Positions 14,537-46,088 of a stretch of DNA of 53,732 nt are shown in pieces (within the stretch, counting starts at the first letter, position 1; each line of letters starts with the position of its first letter). Under the pieces are notes generated by a model. It searched no databases, had not been told where the DNA came from, and saw nothing but the letters and a program-made list of their open reading frames with translations. Position numbers and translations under genes: made by a program. Origin of the DNA: a virus; the IMG/VR virus record IMGVR_UViG_3300031999_000026, positions 1-53,732 of that record; one strand, 5' to 3'.

Positions 14537-16144
14537 TTAATTTCCTAAATTTGTTAAATCAATTGGATCTTCTATTATTTCATTGTCATCTAATAAATCA
14601 TCGGTTACTTCAGCTAAATCTTCTAAACTTTCTATTGAAGGCAAAGAAAATGTCTTCTTTATGATATTATTATCTAATTCATGCAATACTTCATCTGTAA
14701 ATACTGTTGAAGTATATAATTGTGATACGGGAAATTCTCCTCCTAAATGTTTACAAACAAGATATTTTGATGTATCTCTTGGTTCTACCCAAACTTTGGC
14801 GTTAGGTTTTTTTACTGAAACAGTTAAGCCTTTTGTGTTTATTTCTTCAACTAAATCCCAACCCTGCCACTGAAAAGATACCTTTTTTTCATCATCTTTT
14901 AATTTATCATATTCTATTTGGGTATGCATTTTTCCTCTAACAATTCCACAATTATCCCAATTTACAAATCTTTCTAAACCTACATAAGGATTTGGCTTTT
15001 TATAAAATGGAATATGAATTTTAACAGGAATTGGCCGTGCAAATCTTTGCTTATAGGGCCAAAGGGTTACAACTATACCAACTTTTGCTCCCTCAAGTCC
15101 TTGTTTTTTAACATGTTCTTCAGAATCTTTATCAGTCAATTTTGATTTCGTAAGTGTAAACATTATCGAAGGTGAATATTTTCCTCCTCCACCACCAGAT
15201 ATAGTATTACCACCTATAAATGAACCGATTGAAGCGTACACGTGGTTGCAAATTACAAAGGGTATACCTTTCTTAGCAAAATCATTACCAATAACTCTAA
15301 AAGTTCTACGAATTTGTTGAGATTTGGTCATATCCCTTTTATCTGATCCGCTTGTAGCGTCAGTCTTTTCTTTTGTAGATGATAAACTTCCTAATGAATC
15401 AAGAACAACCATGATTTTTGGTACATCTTTCTTAGCAGCTTTAAGTTCTGAAACAGTCTCATTAAGCTTAGCAGCTAAAGTTGTAAATTCTTCAACTGTA
15501 CCTACGTTTTCAATACGGATTTTCGCAGTATCGATTCCTAATCTTTTAAGAAAATCGACATCAATAGAACCTTCTGAATCATAATAGATTGGAAAATAAC
15601 CCATTGATTGAGCATTACGTACAATACTGCAAGCAAGATATGTCTTACCAGAATTATGACTACTTAAACCATTTCCTGACCAATATCGATGATTATCATG
15701 AAGAATTTCAAAATCATAAACAATTTCTGATTTATATGATTTTTTTATTTTTAGTTTTCTATATCCATCTTTTGTTAGTAAAAGATCACTTAATATTAAA
15801 TCTTCGGTTTTTTTCCATCCTTTAGATGTTTCAAACATATGATCACTAGAGCACTTTGTTTTAAAGTTATCTACTGTCTCTATGTAAAATATAGGTTTTG
15901 GACCTTTTATATAAAAGTCTCCTACTTCACTAAACCCATCAGGAGTATCTATGACGAACGCAGTCTCTTGATAATTATCAATTAAATCTTTGATTTTTAT
16001 TTTCTGAGAATGATTCTTAACATATTCATCAAATTTCTTTTTCAGATATTCTTCACTACATTCTATTAAAGATTTTCCTAAAAATGTTTTAAAATTTTCT
16101 CCTAAAACAAATTGCAATTCTTGTTTAATTAGTTCTACATTCAT
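14537..16144 (-). CDS. uvsX: UvsX/RecA-like recombinase, C-terminal half with long split-intein C part
   Basis: Residues 1-164 are an unusually long intein C part. It includes a block-B-like TKCSSDHMF (96-104), block F (VYDFEILHDNHRYW) and the end SSHN. Ser165 starts the extein with SGKTYLACS, completing a Walker A motif begun in the N half (GEEG). The following 370 residues are a RecA/UvsX core: Walker B KIMVVLDSLGSL, loop regions with SGGGGGKYSPSIMF, and an acidic C-terminal tail ending in DPIDLTNLGN. Spliced, the recombinase is about 450 residues. It would coat single-stranded DNA and drive strand exchange. The start overlaps the homing endonuclease by 20 bases. The first 45 residues precede recognisable intein sequence and may be a partner-binding extension. 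Confidence 0.87.
   Translation of the reverse strand: MNVELIKQELQFVLGENFKTFLGKSLIECSEEYLKKKFDEYVKNHSQKIKIKDLIDNYQETAFVIDTPDGFSEVGDFYIKGPKPIFYIETVDNFKTKCSSDHMFETSKGWKKTEDLILSDLLLTKDGYRKLKIKKSYKSEIVYDFEILHDNHRYWSGNGLSSHNSGKTYLACSIVRNAQSMGYFPIYYDSEGSIDVDFLKRLGIDTAKIRIENVGTVEEFTTLAAKLNETVSELKAAKKDVPKIMVVLDSLGSLSSTKEKTDATSGSDKRDMTKSQQIRRTFRVIGNDFAKKGIPFVICNHVYASIGSFIGGNTISGGGGGKYSPSIMFTLTKSKLTDKDSEEHVKKQGLEGAKVGIVVTLWPYKQRFARPIPVKIHIPFYKKPNPYVGLERFVNWDNCGIVRGKMHTQIEYDKLKDDEKKVSFQWQGWDLVEEINTKGLTVSVKKPNAKVWVEPRDTSKYLVCKHLGGEFPVSQLYTSTVFTDEVLHELDNNIIKKTFSLPSIESLEDLAEVTDDLLDDNEIIEDPIDLTNLGN
15653..16144 (-). other. Atypically split intein, C part (uvsX)
   Basis: This 164-residue fragment carries nearly the whole intein fold, including the block B His, and ends in His-Asn before Ser. 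It pairs with an N part of only 26 residues. The layout is like the atypically split AceL-TerL and VidaL inteins, though with an N-terminal extension. Confidence 0.82.
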
Positions 16145-28993: not shown

Positions 28994-30448
28994 TTATTCA
29001 TCTTCCTCTTCTTCTTTTTTATCTTTTTCGTCGAATATATCTTCACCCTGCCATATTGTTACACCATCTAAATCGTGAATATCTTCTGTCTCAAATAAGT
29101 TAACTACACTTACTCTATGACCTACACCTTTTACAAGTGTTGGGTCTATAAATTTATCATAAGCATTTTGAGAAATTATAAGTTCTGATTCTTTATCTTT
29201 TAATTCTTTTACTAATTGTTTTATAGTTGTTTTAGTTTCAGCTAATTCATCTGTTGTGAATTTCCTTGCTGTCATTCTTTCAAGTCTTTCACAAATATCT
29301 TTATCGTATGGTTTTAACCAAGTATCTATTTCTTCATTACTTCTTTTCTTGGTTAATATAAATGTAATAAATAATTCTTTAGCATAATTAAATTTAAGAT
29401 CAAATGCCAATTTATCACGTTCATAAAGAATATTTTTTAGTTTTAAACGAACTATCTGCCACTTATAATCCTCTAAATACTGCTCTATTGAATTGTATAT
29501 AAGAACAGTACCATCTTTTATAAATACTGGGTTTTCATTGACAATTATTGAAAAGATTTTTTGTACATATTTTTGGATATCTTCCCAATCATCTTTACTT
29601 TTACCAGTATAAACAATGTCGATGTTAATTTTAATATTTGAGTTATTTATAATACGTATGTTATTTTCATATCTATTAATAAGATGATCTAATTTTTTCA
29701 ATACTGTTTCGTACTTAAGAATTGGAGGGATTTCACGAACCAAAATTCGTTTCGGTTCAATTATAATATTTGATGAAATTAACCATGTTTTATCAACACC
29801 CCTATACTTTTCAATTGTGCCGGTAAATCCTTCAAAATAAGGTTTAACAGTTTTACGAGTTCCAGCAAAAAATTCTTGAATATCTTTTAATTTACGAGGA
29901 AGAACTGTAGATTTATAGCCTACTGCAATACCAACAATTGGAGAAACAAGTCCTAATGGAATATCCATCCACAGTGGATCATACGGCCCATCTGGTGTTC
30001 GAGAAGTGAGGTGATTATATTTGTTTAATAGACTATTGGTTATTGCAGAAACTTTTACTCCAGTGTATCGAGAAGCGGCTGGTGATGGAGATACTTCAGT
30101 ACCAAAAAAACCATCACCTTCAAGTATCGGCAGAGCGTTACCAAATGGACGAGCTAATTTATTGATAGCACCTTCGATAGAATTTGGGCCATGATGATAA
30201 CCATCTTGTATGCATTTTCCTACTACTGTTAATGTTTTAACAAATGAAGTAGGTGTATTTTTTAAAATATAACGTTGAACAGGTGTAAATGCATCATAAA
30301 AACTGGGTATACCTCTTTGTTCAAGGACATATATAGCATAATCCCTAAATTTTGTATCTATGAATTTACTGATGGGTAATCGAATTATTTTTTCTTTACG
30401 TTTTGGTTTTGTTAAATCTTTTGATTTTTTTGCTTTTACTTTTCGCAT
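28994..30448 (-). CDS. 52: Type II DNA topoisomerase gp52-like (GyrA/ParC-type) subunit
   Basis: This is the DNA-cleaving subunit of a T4-type topoisomerase II. The pattern GIPSFYDAFTPVQRYIL, GYHHGPNSIEGAINKLARPF and SPSPAASRYTG is the GyrA/gp52 breakage-reunion domain; the active-site tyrosine is Tyr128 next to Arg127. The length of 484 matches T4 gp52 (442) and it lacks the GyrA beta-pinwheel. A C-terminal acidic tail follows. The ATPase partner is encoded 8 kb away at 38532-40343. The enzyme would relieve replication stress and support origin function. Confidence 0.9.
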   Translation of the reverse strand: MRKVKAKKSKDLTKPKRKEKIIRLPISKFIDTKFRDYAIYVLEQRGIPSFYDAFTPVQRYILKNTPTSFVKTLTVVGKCIQDGYHHGPNSIEGAINKLARPFGNALPILEGDGFFGTEVSPSPAASRYTGVKVSAITNSLLNKYNHLTSRTPDGPYDPLWMDIPLGLVSPIVGIAVGYKSTVLPRKLKDIQEFFAGTRKTVKPYFEGFTGTIEKYRGVDKTWLISSNIIIEPKRILVREIPPILKYETVLKKLDHLINRYENNIRIINNSNIKINIDIVYTGKSKDDWEDIQKYVQKIFSIIVNENPVFIKDGTVLIYNSIEQYLEDYKWQIVRLKLKNILYERDKLAFDLKFNYAKELFITFILTKKRSNEEIDTWLKPYDKDICERLERMTARKFTTDELAETKTTIKQLVKELKDKESELIISQNAYDKFIDPTLVKGVGHRVSVVNLFETEDIHDLDGVTIWQGEDIFDEKDKKEEEEDE

Positions 30449-31560: not shown

Positions 31561-31607
31561 GTTATAGAGTAAATATAACAATAATTTCTGAATAAAAAAA
31601 ATATTTT
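31561..31607 (-). promoter_or_regulatory. Promoter-like element shared with 32969-33015 and 42969-43006
   Basis: The minus strand reads ATTATTGTTATATTTACTCT followed by ATAAC, preceded by TTTTTTTTATTCAGAA. Nearly the same 45-base block occurs upstream of the xSEL array and of the 42547 gene, each time just before a start codon. Repetition and position suggest a promoter for an early or middle gene class. Confidence 0.5.
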
Positions 31608-31644: not shown

Positions 31645-32079
31645 TCATTTTGTTAATTTTAATTCAGAATTCAATTTAGAACTTAATTTAGAATCCAGTT
31701 CAGAATTTAATTCAGATCTCAATTCAGAACTCAATTCAGAATGTAATTCAGACCACAATTCAGAACTCAATTCAGAATACAATTCAGAATTCAATTCAGA
31801 ATTCAATTCAGAACTCAATTCAGAATCCAATTCAGAATACAATTCAGAAGCTAATTCAAAACTTAATTCAGAATCCAATTCAGAATTTAATTCAGAATTT
31901 AATTCAGAATTCAATTCAGAACTCAATTCAGAATCCAATTCAGAATTCAATTCAGAACTCAATTCAGAATCCAATTCAGACCACAATTCAGAATACAATT
32001 CAGAATCCAATTCAGAACTCAATTCAGAATACAATTCAGAATACAATTCAGATATTTCAAATATATTCATCTTATTCAT
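31645..32079 (-). CDS. xSEL tetrapeptide-repeat protein A4 (144 aa)
   Basis: After the leader MNKMNIFEISEL the protein is an unbroken series of x-Ser-Glu-Leu tetrapeptides to its C-terminus (SELKLTK). The x position is variable (Y, D, W, S, N, H, R). It is the last of four chained frames: its ATG is one base after the TAA of the previous one (TAATATG). No family is recognised. A repeat-protein rod, amphipathic helix or coiled structure is possible. A DNA-level role for the repeat is also possible. Confidence 0.55.
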   Translation of the reverse strand: MNKMNIFEISELYSELYSELSSELDSELYSELWSELDSELSSELNSELDSELSSELNSELNSELNSELDSELSFELASELYSELDSELSSELNSELNSELYSELSSELWSELHSELSSELRSELNSELDSKLSSKLNSELKLTK

Positions 32080-32080
32080 A

Positions 32081-32323
32081 TTATAATTCAGAACCCAATT
32101 CAGATCTCAATTCAGAATCTAATTCAAATCTCAATTCAGAATTCAATTCAGAATCTAATTCAAATCTCAATTCAGAATTCAATTCAGAATACAATTCAGA
32201 ATTCAATTCAGAACCCAATTCAGATCTCAATTCAGAATCCAATTCAGACCATAATTCAGAATCTAATTCTGAATCCAATTCAGATATTTCAAATATATTC
32301 ATCTTATTCATATTATAATTCAA
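32081..32323 (-). CDS. xSEL tetrapeptide-repeat protein A3 (80 aa)
   Basis: The frame starts MNYNMNKMNIFEISEL; the inner MNKMN is an alternative start that matches the other leaders. It continues as xSEL repeats, with occasional Phe replacing Ser (RFEL), to a stop formed by the next leader (GAATTATAA). It overlaps the upstream frame by 11 bases. Confidence 0.5.
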   Translation of the reverse strand: MNYNMNKMNIFEISELDSELDSELWSELDSELRSELGSELNSELYSELNSELRFELDSELNSELRFELDSELRSELGSEL

Positions 32324-32627
32324 AACCTAATTCAGAATCCAATTCAGAACACAATTCAGACCATAATTCAGACCATAATTCAGACCATAATTTAGAACGC
32401 ACTTCAAAATACAATTCAGAACGCAATTCAGACCACAATTCAGACCATAATTTAGAACGCACTTCAAAATACAATTCAGAACGCAATTCAGACCACAATT
32501 CAGAATACAATTCAGAATCCAATTCAGAATACAATTCAGAATCTAATTCAAATCTCAATTCAGAATTCAATTCAGAATACAATTCAGATATTTCAAATAC
32601 ATTCATCTTATTCATATTATAATTCAT
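32313..32627 (-). CDS. xSEL tetrapeptide-repeat protein A2 (104 aa)
   Basis: The leader is MNYNMNKMNVFEISEL, followed by xSEL repeats. Its middle contains two copies of a variant block with LYFEVRSKLWSEL, arising from the 60-base duplication. It overlaps the previous and next frames by 11 bases each. Confidence 0.5.
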   Translation of the reverse strand: MNYNMNKMNVFEISELYSELNSELRFELDSELYSELDSELYSELWSELRSELYFEVRSKLWSELWSELRSELYFEVRSKLWSELWSELWSELCSELDSELGFEL

Positions 32628-32961
32628 ATTCCAATTTAGAATCCAATTCAGATCTCAATTCAGAATCTAATTCAGAACACAATTCAGAATCCAATTCAGA
32701 ACACAATTCAGAACCCAATTCAGATCTCAATTCAGAATCCAATTCAAAACTTAATTCAGATCTCAATTCAGAACGCAATTCAGAACTCAATTCAGACCAC
32801 AATTCAGAATCCAATTCAGAACACAATTCAGAACCCAATTCAGATCTCAATTCAGAATCCAATTCAAAACTTAATTCAGATCTCAATTCAGAACGCAATT
32901 CAGAACTCAATTCAGACCATAATTTAGAACGCACTTCAAAATACAATTCCATATCACTCAT
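32617..32961 (-). CDS. xSEL tetrapeptide-repeat protein A1, first of the array (114 aa)
   Basis: The start, MSDMELYFEVRSKLWSEL, lacks the MNKMN leader. Instead it uses the variant block that also occurs inside protein A2, so it may be derived by duplication. It contains the 120-base-period duplication. It is the first gene after the promoter-like element at 32969-33015. Confidence 0.5.
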   Translation of the reverse strand: MSDMELYFEVRSKLWSELSSELRSELRSELSFELDSELRSELGSELCSELDSELWSELSSELRSELRSELSFELDSELRSELGSELCSELDSELCSELDSELRSELDSKLEYEL

Positions 32962-32968
32962 CTTACTA

Positions 32969-33015
32969 GTTTATAGAGTAAAATATAACAATAATTTCTG
33001 AATAAAAAAATATTT
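32969..33015 (-). promoter_or_regulatory. Promoter-like element upstream of the xSEL array
   Basis: The minus strand reads ATTATTGTTATATTTTACTC followed by TATAAAC, nearly identical to the elements at 31561-31607 and 42969-43006. It lies 8 bases before the first xSEL start. Confidence 0.5.
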
Positions 33016-33949: not shown

Positions 33950-34549
33950 TTAAAATAATTTTTTAGGTTTTAATTCTTCTTTTTTAATCATCTCTGTTAA
34001 AAGTTTATAAATTACAAAAGCATGTCCCATTTTTTTCTGAGGGTCATTTATAACTTGTTCCATAGATTTATTTATCTTAACATGATTATATCCATCAAAA
34101 TCCATTAAATAAATATCTCTTTCTTCTTTTTCATAAAGTTCTAAAAGTTTTTTAAATGCTTCAGTTTTTATAACTGCCCTTGCATATATAGGAATGTAGA
34201 TTTTCTTTCTAGCAGAAACATAATCTAATTTTTCACCATCCCAATAACTATATTCAGGAATTCTTCCTTTTCCCATAGGATATCTATAAGCATAAGAAGA
34301 ATTCCATATAGCTAAAGCCCATTTAAAATATTCTTCAGTTGGCATTCCATTTTTTCCCATATATTCAGAATATACTTTTGATGCTTGCCAAGCATTCTCA
34401 ACATTTTTTGCATAATAATCACCATATAAATGCCCACCCTCTAATAAGAAAGGTGATAATCCTCTACCAAAATCATCCGATTTTGATGTAGTATTAATCC
34501 TTATTGCATTATCAGGAGTTTTTTTGAAATAATTCTCTACATATAACAT
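33950..34549 (-). CDS. Unidentified protein in the NADAR cluster (199 aa)
   Basis: The protein has LSPFLLEGGHLYGDYYAKNV followed by ENAWQASKVY, a pattern reminiscent of the NADAR motif (F/SPF ... ENxxQxxK) but diverged, and a long helical C-terminus. It shares a base with the true NADAR gene upstream (stop at 34549). It may be a distant member of the same fold and act in the same pathway. Not certain. Confidence 0.5.
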   Translation of the reverse strand: MLYVENYFKKTPDNAIRINTTSKSDDFGRGLSPFLLEGGHLYGDYYAKNVENAWQASKVYSEYMGKNGMPTEEYFKWALAIWNSSYAYRYPMGKGRIPEYSYWDGEKLDYVSARKKIYIPIYARAVIKTEAFKKLLELYEKEERDIYLMDFDGYNHVKINKSMEQVINDPQKKMGHAFVIYKLLTEMIKKEELKPKKLF

Positions 34550-41137: not shown

Positions 41138-42007
41138 TTATGCGACTATTTCAGAAACTTCGGAAAGATAGCTTTCAGCTATTTCCCAAAGTGACTTGTT
41201 GAAGTTAATATGACGAGTAGCATTATTTATGCCACGAGGTTTAGTCCTACGACCGTTCATCGTCTGACGTTCGAATTCACCCTTAACAAGACGTTCCTGG
41301 ATGACATTGAACACTGTCCAAAGGTCTTCCTTCTTGTCTTCTCCTCTGAGAGGTTCAACAATCTGGGCAGGCTTGATGATGGTAGTGGCTCTCTTCATAT
41401 CGATGGTACCGTCTTCCTTAACGAATACGTGAGGTTCCCTGGCAGCAACTGCCCTGATAACGAATTCTTCCCTCTGGTCCTGGTTCAATTTGAACTCCTG
41501 CATGGCTTCAATGTGTGAACCAATCGTAGTGTACTGATTGGCAACAATTTCCATGAGTTTCTTCAACTCATTGAGGTCGATACCGACGTGGCGAAGCTTA
41601 ACTGAAGTGTACATGCCAGGCATTGCAACTACAAGACCGTTGGTGCAGACGAGGCGGAAAAGGCCCATATGAATCTGAGCAGGGGAGCAGCCATTGTGGG
41701 AATTGTCAAGGACAATCTGTGGCTTAACGAGGTCAGTCTTCAATTTCATGAAGCCGAGGTCAGGATTCGTGAGGCGAACCATATGGCGGGCATAAGGACC
41801 TGTACCATTCTGGCGAGTGTGAGTTGGTGCCCATCCAAGAGTATCAAAAGCGTTGAGTAACTCAACAGTAGGTACAAACGAATAACGTTTAGAGAGTTTA
41901 GGGCTTTCGTGATTGGAGAAAGCTGCTGGAGAAAAGTTACGGACGTCTTCAATAGAAGATACCGAATAACCAATACTAGTTAAATTAATTTGATTAATTT
42001 GTGTCAT
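41138..42007 (-). CDS. DUF932 (phage/plasmid-like TIGR03299) protein (289 aa)
   Basis: The central region, PQIVLDNSHNGCSPAQIHMG then LFRLVCTNGLVVAM, is the DUF932 core seen in many phages and plasmids. The rest, including a basic C-terminus ending EIAESYLSEVSEIVA, fits the family. Its biochemical role is not established; some relatives lie near recombination genes. The start at 42007 (MTQINQINLT) is preferred over the ATG at 42034, which adds nine residues in AT-rich sequence. The coding region is strikingly GC-richer than the window, suggesting high expression or recent acquisition. Confidence 0.8.
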   Translation of the reverse strand: MTQINQINLTSIGYSVSSIEDVRNFSPAAFSNHESPKLSKRYSFVPTVELLNAFDTLGWAPTHTRQNGTGPYARHMVRLTNPDLGFMKLKTDLVKPQIVLDNSHNGCSPAQIHMGLFRLVCTNGLVVAMPGMYTSVKLRHVGIDLNELKKLMEIVANQYTTIGSHIEAMQEFKLNQDQREEFVIRAVAAREPHVFVKEDGTIDMKRATTIIKPAQIVEPLRGEDKKEDLWTVFNVIQERLVKGEFERQTMNGRRTKPRGINNATRHINFNKSLWEIAESYLSEVSEIVA

Positions 42008-42056
42008 TGTGTATTTTTTAATGATTAATGGCAATGGTAAATTAATTCCTTAAAAA

Positions 42057-44801: not shown

Positions 44802-44835
44802 TGTTTAATGTTTTAATTGTATAGTAAATATAACA

Positions 44836-44870
44836 ACAAAATCCGACAAATAAAAATATTTATCGGATTA
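44836..44870 (-). terminator. Hairpin terminator after xSEL array B
   Basis: The stem ATCCGATAAATA / TATTTGTCGGAT (one mismatch, 4-base loop) is followed by TTTTGTT on the minus strand. It then runs into a TTGTTATATTTACTATA promoter-like sequence before the 44801 start. Confidence 0.75.
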
Positions 44871-44895: not shown

Positions 44896-45159
44896 CTATT
44901 CAGAATCCAATTTAGAACTTAATTCAGATTCTAATTCAGAATCCAATTCAAAATTCAATTCAGAACTCAATTCAGAACTCAATTCAGAACCCAATTCAGA
45001 TCTCAATTCAGAATACAATTCAGAATACAATTCAGATCTCAATTCAGAACTCAATTCAGAACTCAATTCAGAACACAATTCAGAATCCAATTCAGAATAC
45101 AATTCAAATCTCAATTCAGAATCCAATTCAGATATTTCAAATATATTCATCTTATTCAT
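44896..45159 (-). CDS. xSEL tetrapeptide-repeat protein B2 (87 aa)
   Basis: The leader MNKMNIFEISEL is identical to that of protein A4 in the other array, 13 kb away. xSEL repeats run to the end (SELDSE). The start is one base after the stop of the previous frame. A terminator follows. Confidence 0.55.
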   Translation of the reverse strand: MNKMNIFEISELDSELRFELYSELDSELCSELSSELSSELRSELYSELYSELRSELGSELSSELSSELNFELDSELESELSSKLDSE

Positions 45160-45430
45160 ATTATAATTCAGATTCCAATTCAGAATTTAATTCAGAATAC
45201 AATTCAGATCTCAATTCAGAATCCAATTCAGAACTCAATTCAGATCTCAATTCAGAATCCACAGAATCCAATTCAAAAACTAACTCAGAACACAATTCAG
45301 AACCCAATTCAGAATACAATTCAGACCACAATTCAAATTTCAATTCAGAATACAATTCAGAATCTAATTCAGACTGTAATTCAGAATCCAATTCAAAAAC
45401 TAACTCAGAACACAATTCAGAATCCAATTT
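44900..45430 (-). repeat. Tandem 12-bp repeat array B (xSEL), about 44 units
   Basis: The same TCTGAATTG-plus-codon unit as array A is repeated about 44 times. A block with CCAATTCAAAAACTAACTCA occurs twice (45268-45300 and 45388-45420), showing internal duplication. The array directly follows, and partly overlaps, the end of a tagged gene. Confidence 0.9.
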
Positions 45431-45472
45431 AATGTTTATCATAAGTTTTCTCTGTATATCCTTGAACATCAT
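45161..45472 (-). CDS. xSEL tetrapeptide-repeat protein B1 (103 aa)
   Basis: It starts MMFKDIQRKLMINIKLDSEL inside the 3' end of the tagged gene, overlapping it by 44 bases, then continues as xSEL repeats with VFELDS variants. The unusual start suggests the array was inserted or grew next to the tagged gene. A different true start is possible. Confidence 0.45.
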   Translation of the reverse strand: MMFKDIQRKLMINIKLDSELCSELVFELDSELQSELDSELYSELKFELWSELYSELGSELCSELVFELDSVDSELRSELSSELDSELRSELYSELNSELESEL

Positions 45473-46088
45473 AAGTTTGAGAAATACTCTTCCCCCATTT
45501 ATTAATGTGACCTAGTGTTGCAGGTCTTGCATCAAGATAATTTTGCCATAATGTTTTTTCTGGATCGCCATATTTATAAACATAAGCAACTTTAAGCATA
45601 TTTGTTTCATGATCTGTAAGTTGTTTATCGAATCGATAATATGCTGTTTCTGTGCTACCATCTGTAGATCTTAAAACCTTATCAGTTTCTTCTGCGGCTT
45701 CTGCTGGAATTTCAGCTTCATCAAAAAATTCGAGTGGAACATCTCCATGAACAACTTTTTCTTGAAATTTTACTTCTGATCGTTCTTCTCTAGTGAGTTT
45801 AAGTTTATCAGAAAAATTGAGAATAACTGCAGCTTGAAGTATGAGATTTTTAACTTCGGCAAGAGAATTTTTTATACCATAAGTTCTCTTTAAGTTATAG
45901 TAAAATTTATCAATATCAAGTTTTCCCTCAAGAAATGCGTTATCTGGAATTCGTTGTAATTCATTTGCAACTCGTGCAAATAAAGCAGATTTAAAGATTG
46001 TGTATTTTTCTCGTAGATTTCTTGTGTCTCCGATTGGAATGTTTTTCATTTCTAAAAGAATAGATTCTTTAACAAGTTTTGCTCTCAT
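45429..46088 (-). CDS. Tagged protein of unknown function (219 aa)
   Basis: It begins MRAKLVKESILLEM, the clearest consensus tag, and is preceded by a TATAAATA box. The N-terminal half is helical (YTIFKSALFARVANELQRIP), followed by an acidic linker (FFDEAEIPAEAAEETDKVLR) and a C-terminal region with ETNMLKVAYVYKYGDPEKTL resembling the winged-helix-like tagged proteins. Its 3' end overlaps xSEL array B. No function is known. Confidence 0.6.
   Translation of the reverse strand: MRAKLVKESILLEMKNIPIGDTRNLREKYTIFKSALFARVANELQRIPDNAFLEGKLDIDKFYYNLKRTYGIKNSLAEVKNLILQAAVILNFSDKLKLTREERSEVKFQEKVVHGDVPLEFFDEAEIPAEAAEETDKVLRSTDGSTETAYYRFDKQLTDHETNMLKVAYVYKYGDPEKTLWQNYLDARPATLGHINKWGKSISQTYDVQGYTEKTYDKH

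What the first reader, a model, noticed from the sequence alone, without database searches (positions are those of the whole stretch)
31645..32961. xSEL array A: DNA-level conserved 12-mer with one hypervariable codon
About 105 copies of TCTGAATTG-NNN are present. Nine bases are nearly fixed, including silent positions, while the fourth codon changes freely, mainly among GAT, TAT, AGA, AGT, TGT, GGT, AAT and TGG. Protein-level selection alone would not fix silent sites, so either the array expands and homogenises very recently or the 9-mer matters as DNA or RNA. A repeat protein with one variable residue per four is also reminiscent of a designed binding surface.
Basis: seen in the sequence. 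Interest (0 to 1): 0.85.

Follow-up and report, generated by a model that had tools for sequence, protein, structure and literature searches.

The report
Phage tetrapeptide-repeat proteins with hypervariable residue
A large virus of bacteria carries a chain of small genes for repetitive proteins (Ser-Glu-Leu plus one fast-changing residue), a kind of repeat that many phages have and that in one studied phage lets the virus retune itself against bacterial defences.

Summary
The array is real: 100 units of TCTGAATTG-NNN on the minus strand of a T4-like phage fragment, plus a second array at 44896-45472. All 93 exact 9-mers in the window lie in the two arrays. It is not one ORF: array A is four short ORFs (114, 104, 76 and 144 aa) joined by TAATATG stop/start couplings.

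Relatives settle the silent-site puzzle. Other phages carry the same xSEL protein repeat with different silent bases, each nearly frozen inside its own array (TCAGAACTA, TCAGAACTT, TCGGAGCTT, AGCRAACTC). The 9-mer is therefore a trace of recent unit amplification, not a DNA or RNA motif. S, E and L are under purifying selection. The variable codon differs at its first and second bases, with no C-ending codons at all (0 of 99 NRY, 14.5 expected), which points to selection for amino-acid diversity.

Starting from an unnamed partner gene ("GHxH"), 56 of 80 viral loci hold such arrays and 52 hold a DUF6745-like gene; controls had none. Stand-alone array ORFs like those here lie beside or near that gene in three other phages.

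The closest characterised case is Tweety gp54, whose 12-bp repeat number tunes counter-defence. Function here is inferred, not shown.

The parts
32617..32961 (-). ORF A1, 114 aa, MSDMELYFEVRSKLWSEL... xSEL repeats
   Evidence: Open frame; modelled as one continuous alpha-helix, mean pLDDT 92.9
32313..32627 (-). ORF A2, 104 aa, MNYNMNKMNVFEISEL... xSEL repeats
   Evidence: Open frame overlapping the stop of A1
32081..32311 (-). ORF A3, 76 aa, MNKMNIFEISELDSEL... xSEL repeats
   Evidence: Start one base after the stop of A2, TAATATG
31645..32079 (-). ORF A4, 144 aa, MNKMNIFEISELYSEL...KLTK
   Evidence: Start one base after the stop of A3, TAATATG
32583..32619 (-). Linker copy 1 (stop/start junction, 37 bp matched), encodes the N-terminal leader MNKMN[IV]FEI
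   Evidence: Pattern match
32279..32315 (-). Linker copy 2
   Evidence: Pattern match
32047..32083 (-). Linker copy 3
   Evidence: Pattern match
45161..45472 (-). ORF B1 of the second array (103 aa from the first ATG; an inner ATG at about 45442 gives MINIKLDSELCSEL...)
   Evidence: Open frame overlapping the 3' end of gene 45429-46088
44896..45159 (-). ORF B2 of the second array, 87 aa, MNKMNIFEISELDSEL...
   Evidence: Same TAATATG junction; linker at 45127-45163
31562..31581 (-). TTGTTATATTTACTCTATAA, promoter-like sequence downstream of array A, upstream of the next gene
   Evidence: 2 matches in the window within 3 mismatches, 0.12 expected; aligned copies
32971..32991 (-). The same promoter-like sequence (one extra T) directly upstream of ORF A1
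   Evidence: Sequence and alignment
44817..44836 (-). The same promoter-like sequence (2 mismatches) downstream of array B

Best explanation
The arrays encode small stand-alone tetrapeptide-repeat proteins (xSEL)n, probably helical, translated from strings of stop/start-coupled ORFs in an accessory region of a T4-like phage. Shown: units multiply and are lost in whole 12-bp steps (seen in relatives), which keeps the frame and repeatedly makes all units near-identical copies of a recent ancestor, so silent sites look frozen. Shown: the S, E and L positions are under purifying selection, while the x codon is diversified at its first and second bases. Inferred: x is under selection for variety because the proteins bind changing partners. 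Most likely they act in phage-host or phage-phage conflict, with unit number and x pattern tuning the interaction as in Tweety gp54. Also inferred: they are the stand-alone form of the arrays that other phages fuse to a DUF6745-like domain next to the 'GHxH' partner gene.
For: Coding and purifying selection: changes per synonymous versus non-synonymous site in the SEL core are 0.135 vs 0.032 (A), 0.122 vs 0.027 (B), 0.098 vs 0.006 (L035), 0.31 vs 0.018 (L031). Arrays lie in frame inside long proteins in other phages. L098/L237 carries about 18 overlapping 54-74 aa ORFs, MNNIREEL...(xSEL)n...INSMIDE. Silent sites differ between phages but are nearly frozen within each array. x codon: heterozygosity 0.71/0.51/0.40 against 0.02, 0.00 and 0.35 at the three silent core sites; 0 C-ending among 99 NRY x codons against 14.5 expected, log10 P = -6.9. 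Forty-six further arrays show the same signature: mean 0.56 and 0.31 at x bases 1 and 2, 0.09-0.14 at third codon bases of x and the two following residues. Unit-wise turnover: L091 and L100, 99.5% alike over 5.7 kb, differ by one 24-bp array indel. Partner link: GHxH lies beside the L098 ORF string (E 3e-11) and in the 340-kb G003; of 80 loci found by GHxH, 56 have arrays and 52 a DUF6745 C-terminal domain, controls none; L279 has GHxH, an array-less DUF6745 gene and three stand-alone array ORFs. Precedent for function: Tweety gp54 (PMC2884959; PMC9262239; PMC8549241).
Against: The window itself has neither GHxH nor DUF6745; it is a 53.7-kb fragment. Tweety gp54 shows no detectable homology outside its repeats. 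No array of this family is tied here to a defence gene. Synonymous and non-synonymous classes are confounded with base (core changes are mostly GC to AT) and with strand: G9 to A is silent on both strands. Copies are related by duplication, so the counts are not independent. Array length in a metagenome assembly may be wrong. Helicity rests on a model: the array in the fused protein L105 was modelled with low confidence.
Confidence: 0.6

Rival explanations
1. The 9-mer is a DNA or RNA element (iteron, protein-binding or structural array) and the open frame is incidental.
For: Silent positions 3 and 6 are near-invariant; the RNA of ORF A4 folds far better than dinucleotide shuffles, z -9.6.
Against: The 9-mer is absent from the rest of the window. 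Phages with the same peptide use other fixed bases. Among 72 synonymous encodings the real one ranks 48th, 25th, 13th, 68th and 67th for stability in five array stretches. No Rfam family matches. The frame is kept by 12-bp steps and purifying selection.
Confidence: 0.07
2. Neutral satellite DNA: slippage makes simple repeats that happen to stay open; x is just mutational noise.
For: Syntenic relatives lack the arrays, so they are dispensable; many bacterial hits of the same degenerate pattern are plain repeats with one constant x.
Against: Noise would hit silent and non-silent sites alike, but x varies at bases 1 and 2 and not at silent sites, in this phage and in 46 other arrays. The x alphabet recurs in unrelated phages and excludes most aliphatic residues. 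Arrays associate with GHxH and DUF6745.
Confidence: 0.13
3. Targeted mutagenesis of the x codon (diversity-generating retroelement or similar) rather than selection.
For: Variation is confined to one codon per unit; in some arrays 11 of 12 bases are invariant (L105).
Against: No reverse transcriptase (PF00078) in the window record or in six related or array-bearing records, including 340-kb and 129-kb ones. A mutator blind to codons would also change the third base; none of 99 NRY codons ends in C. Whole-unit indels explain part of the turnover.
Confidence: 0.08
4. A purely structural role: a helical spacer or filament of adjustable length, x free because it faces solvent.
For: Single helix predicted for A1, pLDDT 92.9. 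HsdS proteins carry similar TSEL/ESEL/TTEL repeats.
Against: A free position should show silent changes too; the ORFs here have no flanking domains to space; the x alphabet is rich in W, R, Y, C and D and poor in the helix formers K, E, Q and A.
Confidence: 0.2

Closest known systems
Mycobacteriophage Tweety gp54 (and Che8 gp57, PMC gp51) tetrapeptide-repeat protein (PMC2884959, PMC9262239, PMC8549241)
   Same: 12-bp in-frame units; third codon positions invariant, first and second positions of the variable residues differ; small alphabet including W, G, S and Y; absent from a close relative (Llij); repeat number reported to differ between related phages and to tune counter-defence.
   Different: Constant residues are AA, not SEL; one array inside a protein with its own N- and C-terminal regions; no detectable homology to DUF6745 or GHxH. 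The window has several stand-alone ORFs.
DUF6745 proteins (Pfam PF20530) with tetrapeptide arrays next to the GHxH gene (PHROG 27831, unknown function)
   Same: Same unit logic x-[S/D/A/N]-[E/Q/S/N]-[L/V]; some use xSEL with W/R/G; one case (L279) has stand-alone array ORFs like the window.
   Different: The window lacks both the DUF6745 domain and GHxH (fragment); its x alphabet is wider (D, R, S, N, Y, W, G, C).
Tandem small xSEL ORFs of L098/L237 (129-kb contig) and L043/L238 (340-kb contig)
   Same: Small ORFs made of xSEL units with M-N/K-N leaders (closely overlapping in L098); GHxH gene beside (L098) or about 16 kb away (L043).
   Different: Different fixed silent bases (TCAGAACTT, TCAGAACTA); more diverged, with a conserved C-terminal EINSMIDE in L098.
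HsdS TAEL-type spacer repeats of type I restriction enzymes
   Same: Four-residue xSEL-like or xTEL repeats; copy number known to vary in whole units (from general knowledge).
   Different: Constant x within an array, and a Methylase_S domain that the window ORFs lack.
Bordetella phage bbp36 VR2 repeats (cited in PMC2884959)
   Same: In-frame phage repeat with variable number.
   Different: 24-bp unit with 5-bp spacers; not compared by sequence here.

Membership tests
Tweety gp54-type tetrapeptide-repeat proteins | 12-bp in-frame tandem unit | tested here: met
Tweety gp54-type tetrapeptide-repeat proteins | Third codon positions invariant, first and second positions of variable residues differ | tested here: met
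   exception: Leu TTG/TTA 75/25
Tweety gp54-type tetrapeptide-repeat proteins | Homologous N- and C-terminal regions around the array | tested here: not met
   Window ORFs are stand-alone; no match of gp54 to the fused family outside the repeats
Tweety gp54-type tetrapeptide-repeat proteins | Repeat number tunes counter-defence | not testable with these tools
   Needs phage and host
DUF6745/GHxH array system | Hypervariable tetrapeptide array | tested here: met
DUF6745/GHxH array system | DUF6745 domain in the genome | tested here: not met
   on a 53.7-kb fragment; also absent from G003 and G004
DUF6745/GHxH array system | GHxH partner gene | tested here: not met
   window fragment; present in the other two stand-alone xSEL phages G003 and G004
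Diversity-generating retroelement | Reverse transcriptase | tested here: not met
   the records may be incomplete
HsdS spacer repeats | Methylase_S domain | tested here: not met
   Window ORFs: no such match; present in L118, L206, L170
DNA iteron or binding-site array | Motif conserved among phages with the array | tested here: not met
   Silent bases differ

The most novel reading that the evidence does not exclude
Phages of many lineages carry a recognition system in which a tetrapeptide array is a readable code: the order of x residues along a helical repeat sets which defence or rival-phage protein is bound, units are gained and lost in 12-bp steps, and a GHxH protein with or without a DUF6745 domain is the effector. 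The window would carry a stand-alone 'code strip' library of six ORFs.
Probability: 0.12. Interest if true: 0.92.

Novelty: new variant of a known kind. Interest (0 to 1): 0.62.

Why it matters
The oddity noted once for Tweety gp54 (frozen silent sites, changing amino acids) appears here as a general pattern in dozens of phage arrays, tied to two uncharacterised gene families. Since repeat number of gp54 is reported to tune counter-defence, this offers a concrete, searchable family in which fast phage adaptation could be tested, and a reason to look at repetitive ORFs that annotation usually discards.

Tried and rejected
tblastn with the xSEL peptide and with the L034 protein against phage and plasmid records found nothing; for the bare repeat this is uninformative, because the low-complexity filter is on. 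Pfam, PHROG and NCBIfam hits to bare xSEL ORFs (MgtE_N, Gp23, ClfA and others) are weak compositional matches and were rejected. An antisense reading (NSEx) is open inside blocks but breaks at every linker and does not fit the fused proteins. RNA structure: strong z-score but not consistent between arrays once only silent choice is varied. The fused protein L105 modelled poorly (pLDDT 55.9) and its fold search gave nothing. L087/L076 against L104: all 5 and 4 differences fall in the array, but the first two appear to end inside the array, so this is only suggestive. The synonymous/non-synonymous ratio cannot by itself tell the coding strand; the fused and ORF-string homologues do. My first count of DUF6745 neighbours (62 of 80) used a model that included array columns; the array-free model gives 52.

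Full report
What the window is. The window is a whole virus record of 53,732 bases, probably a fragment. Its genes (UvsX, two topoisomerase II subunits, SbcC/SbcD, RNA ligase, gp30.3, family-B DNA polymerase, DnaB-like helicase) mark it as a T4-like phage. It has no near relative among the GenBank phage records. IMG/VR relatives with 70-75% identical topoisomerases keep the local gene order but lack the arrays at both sites.

The array. Array A spans 31645-32961 on the minus strand. I parse 100 units of TCTGAATTG-NNN: 67 exact, 14 with TTA, and a few with TTT (Phe) or AAA (Lys) changes. All 93 exact 9-mers of the window are in arrays A and B, on one strand. Array A is four ORFs of 114, 104, 76 and 144 aa. 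Each junction is a 31-bp linker, TAATATGAATAAGATGAAT[AG]TATTTGAAATA, in which the next start follows the stop by one base, or overlaps it upstream. Array B is two more ORFs with the same junction. A 10-unit block of array A is duplicated in tandem at about 92% identity. A promoter-like sequence lies upstream of A1, downstream of A4 and downstream of array B.

Why the silent sites are frozen. Leu TTG is only 8% of Leu codons in the other window genes but 75% in the array, so TTG was inherited from a founding unit and is decaying to TTA. In a degenerate search, other phages show the same peptide with other fixed bases: TCAGAACTA in a 340-kb contig, TCAGAACTT in a 129-kb contig, TCGGAGCTT, TC[AG]GAGCTG, TCTGAACTT and AGCRAACTC in longer proteins, most with a DUF6745-like domain. 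Each is nearly frozen within its array. This is what unit amplification with rapid turnover gives, and it removes the need for a DNA-level role of TCTGAATTG. RNA folding of array A is strong, but when only the silent choice is varied the real encodings rank anywhere from 13th to 68th of 72.

Why the variable codon is not noise. In the SEL core, synonymous changes per site exceed non-synonymous ones four-fold or more in arrays A, B, L035 and L031. At x the picture is reversed: heterozygosity is 0.71 and 0.51 at the first two bases, the second base is a purine in 99 of 100 units, and no NRY codon ends in C where 14.5 of 99 would be expected from the codon usage of the phage. Residues are D, R, S, Y, N, W, G and C; W is 6.7-fold, C 5.1-fold and R 4.8-fold over background, and L, T, F, P and M are absent. 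Selection for different residues explains this better than a mutator that ignores codon position, and no reverse transcriptase was found. These counts are not independent, since units are copied from each other.

The family. L098/L237 has about 18 overlapping ORFs of 54-74 aa with leader MNNIREEL, diverged xSEL units and a C-terminal EINSMIDE. In other phages the array sits in frame inside a protein with a C-terminal DUF6745-like domain. Next to these lies a small gene with a conserved pattern GHxH...HEEH...QREYD...VxD, here called GHxH; it matches only PHROG 27831, of unknown function. A GHxH relative also follows the L098 ORF string (E 3e-11) and lies in the 340-kb phage (E 8e-22). To test the link without starting from arrays, I collected 80 viral loci by GHxH alone: 56 hold period-4 arrays and 52 a DUF6745 C-terminal domain by a model without array columns. 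None of 13 control loci without known arrays held an array, and none of the controls held the domain. Forty-six arrays show the same positional signature as the window. L279 joins the two layouts: GHxH, an array-less DUF6745 gene, and three separate small array ORFs such as MNIEDQLRGQLYGQLWGQL. Bacterial DUF6745 proteins mostly lack arrays; one actinobacterial case has HDAV/HGAV units.

Turnover. L091 and L100 are 99.5% identical over 5.7 kb and differ by a single 24-bp indel, two units, in the array. In another pair all differences fall in the array, but probably at contig ends, so this is weaker.

Structure. A1 is modelled as one continuous helix (mean pLDDT 92.9, pTM 0.42). The same kind of array in the fused protein L105 was modelled with low confidence, so helicity is an inference.

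Known relatives and function. Tweety gp54 has 48 tetrapeptide units of 12 bp, with third positions invariant and first and second positions varying; its authors read this as selection for variation (PMC2884959). Escape mutants that overcome prophage defence carry more or fewer units (PMC9262239; PMC8549241). gp54 shares the repeat logic but no detectable domain with the window or the DUF6745 family. I therefore propose that the window ORFs work like gp54, as tunable interaction proteins in phage conflict, without claiming that they are gp54 homologues. Shown: an open coding frame with core conservation, x diversity, unit-wise change in relatives, and the GHxH/DUF6745 association in relatives. 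Inferred: expression, helicity, binding and counter-defence.

Limits. The record is a metagenome fragment; array length may be mis-assembled; GHxH and DUF6745 are absent from the fragment; and no experiment is available.

Noticed in passing
window 14537-16144: The UvsX/RecA-like gene has an intein splicing domain match at residues 44-124 (Pfam Intein_splicing); two other window ORFs also match intein domains.
   Followed up: no
window 41138-42034: A gene with a TTG start, 72-81% identical in relatives, lies in a stretch of 42% G+C within a 28% G+C genome.
   Followed up: no
window 33950-34549: A DUF6939/NADAR-like gene (E 8.6e-9) lies upstream of array A in the direction of transcription, and another window ORF has a strong NADAR match (7e-45), hinting at an accessory conflict region.
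   Followed up: partly
L228, L234, L235, L236: The topoisomerase gene homologous to window 28994-30448 is split in several relatives by roughly 0.7-1.2-kb insertions near residue 88, as expected for an intron, intein or homing element.
   Followed up: no
L034:757-4482: The contig with the xSEL-DUF6745 protein also encodes a TROVE/Ro60-like protein, and, by eye, a band-7-like membrane protein and a pentapeptide-repeat protein.
   Followed up: partly
L118, L206, L170: The degenerate pattern also recovers type I restriction HsdS proteins with long TSEL, ESEL and TTEL repeats with constant x.
   Followed up: partly
L231:7818-8343: A 9-bp tandem repeat of 58 copies in a 405-kb relative; not examined further.
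   Followed up: no
L245: Around GHxH in the 340-kb phage lie eight small ORFs of 60-87 aa, several MKN-type with weak EL periodicity, possibly diverged relatives of xSEL ORFs.
   Followed up: partly
L035:1-672: In L035 the array converges on a gene of the opposite strand, unlike in the window, where arrays run with their neighbours.
   Followed up: no
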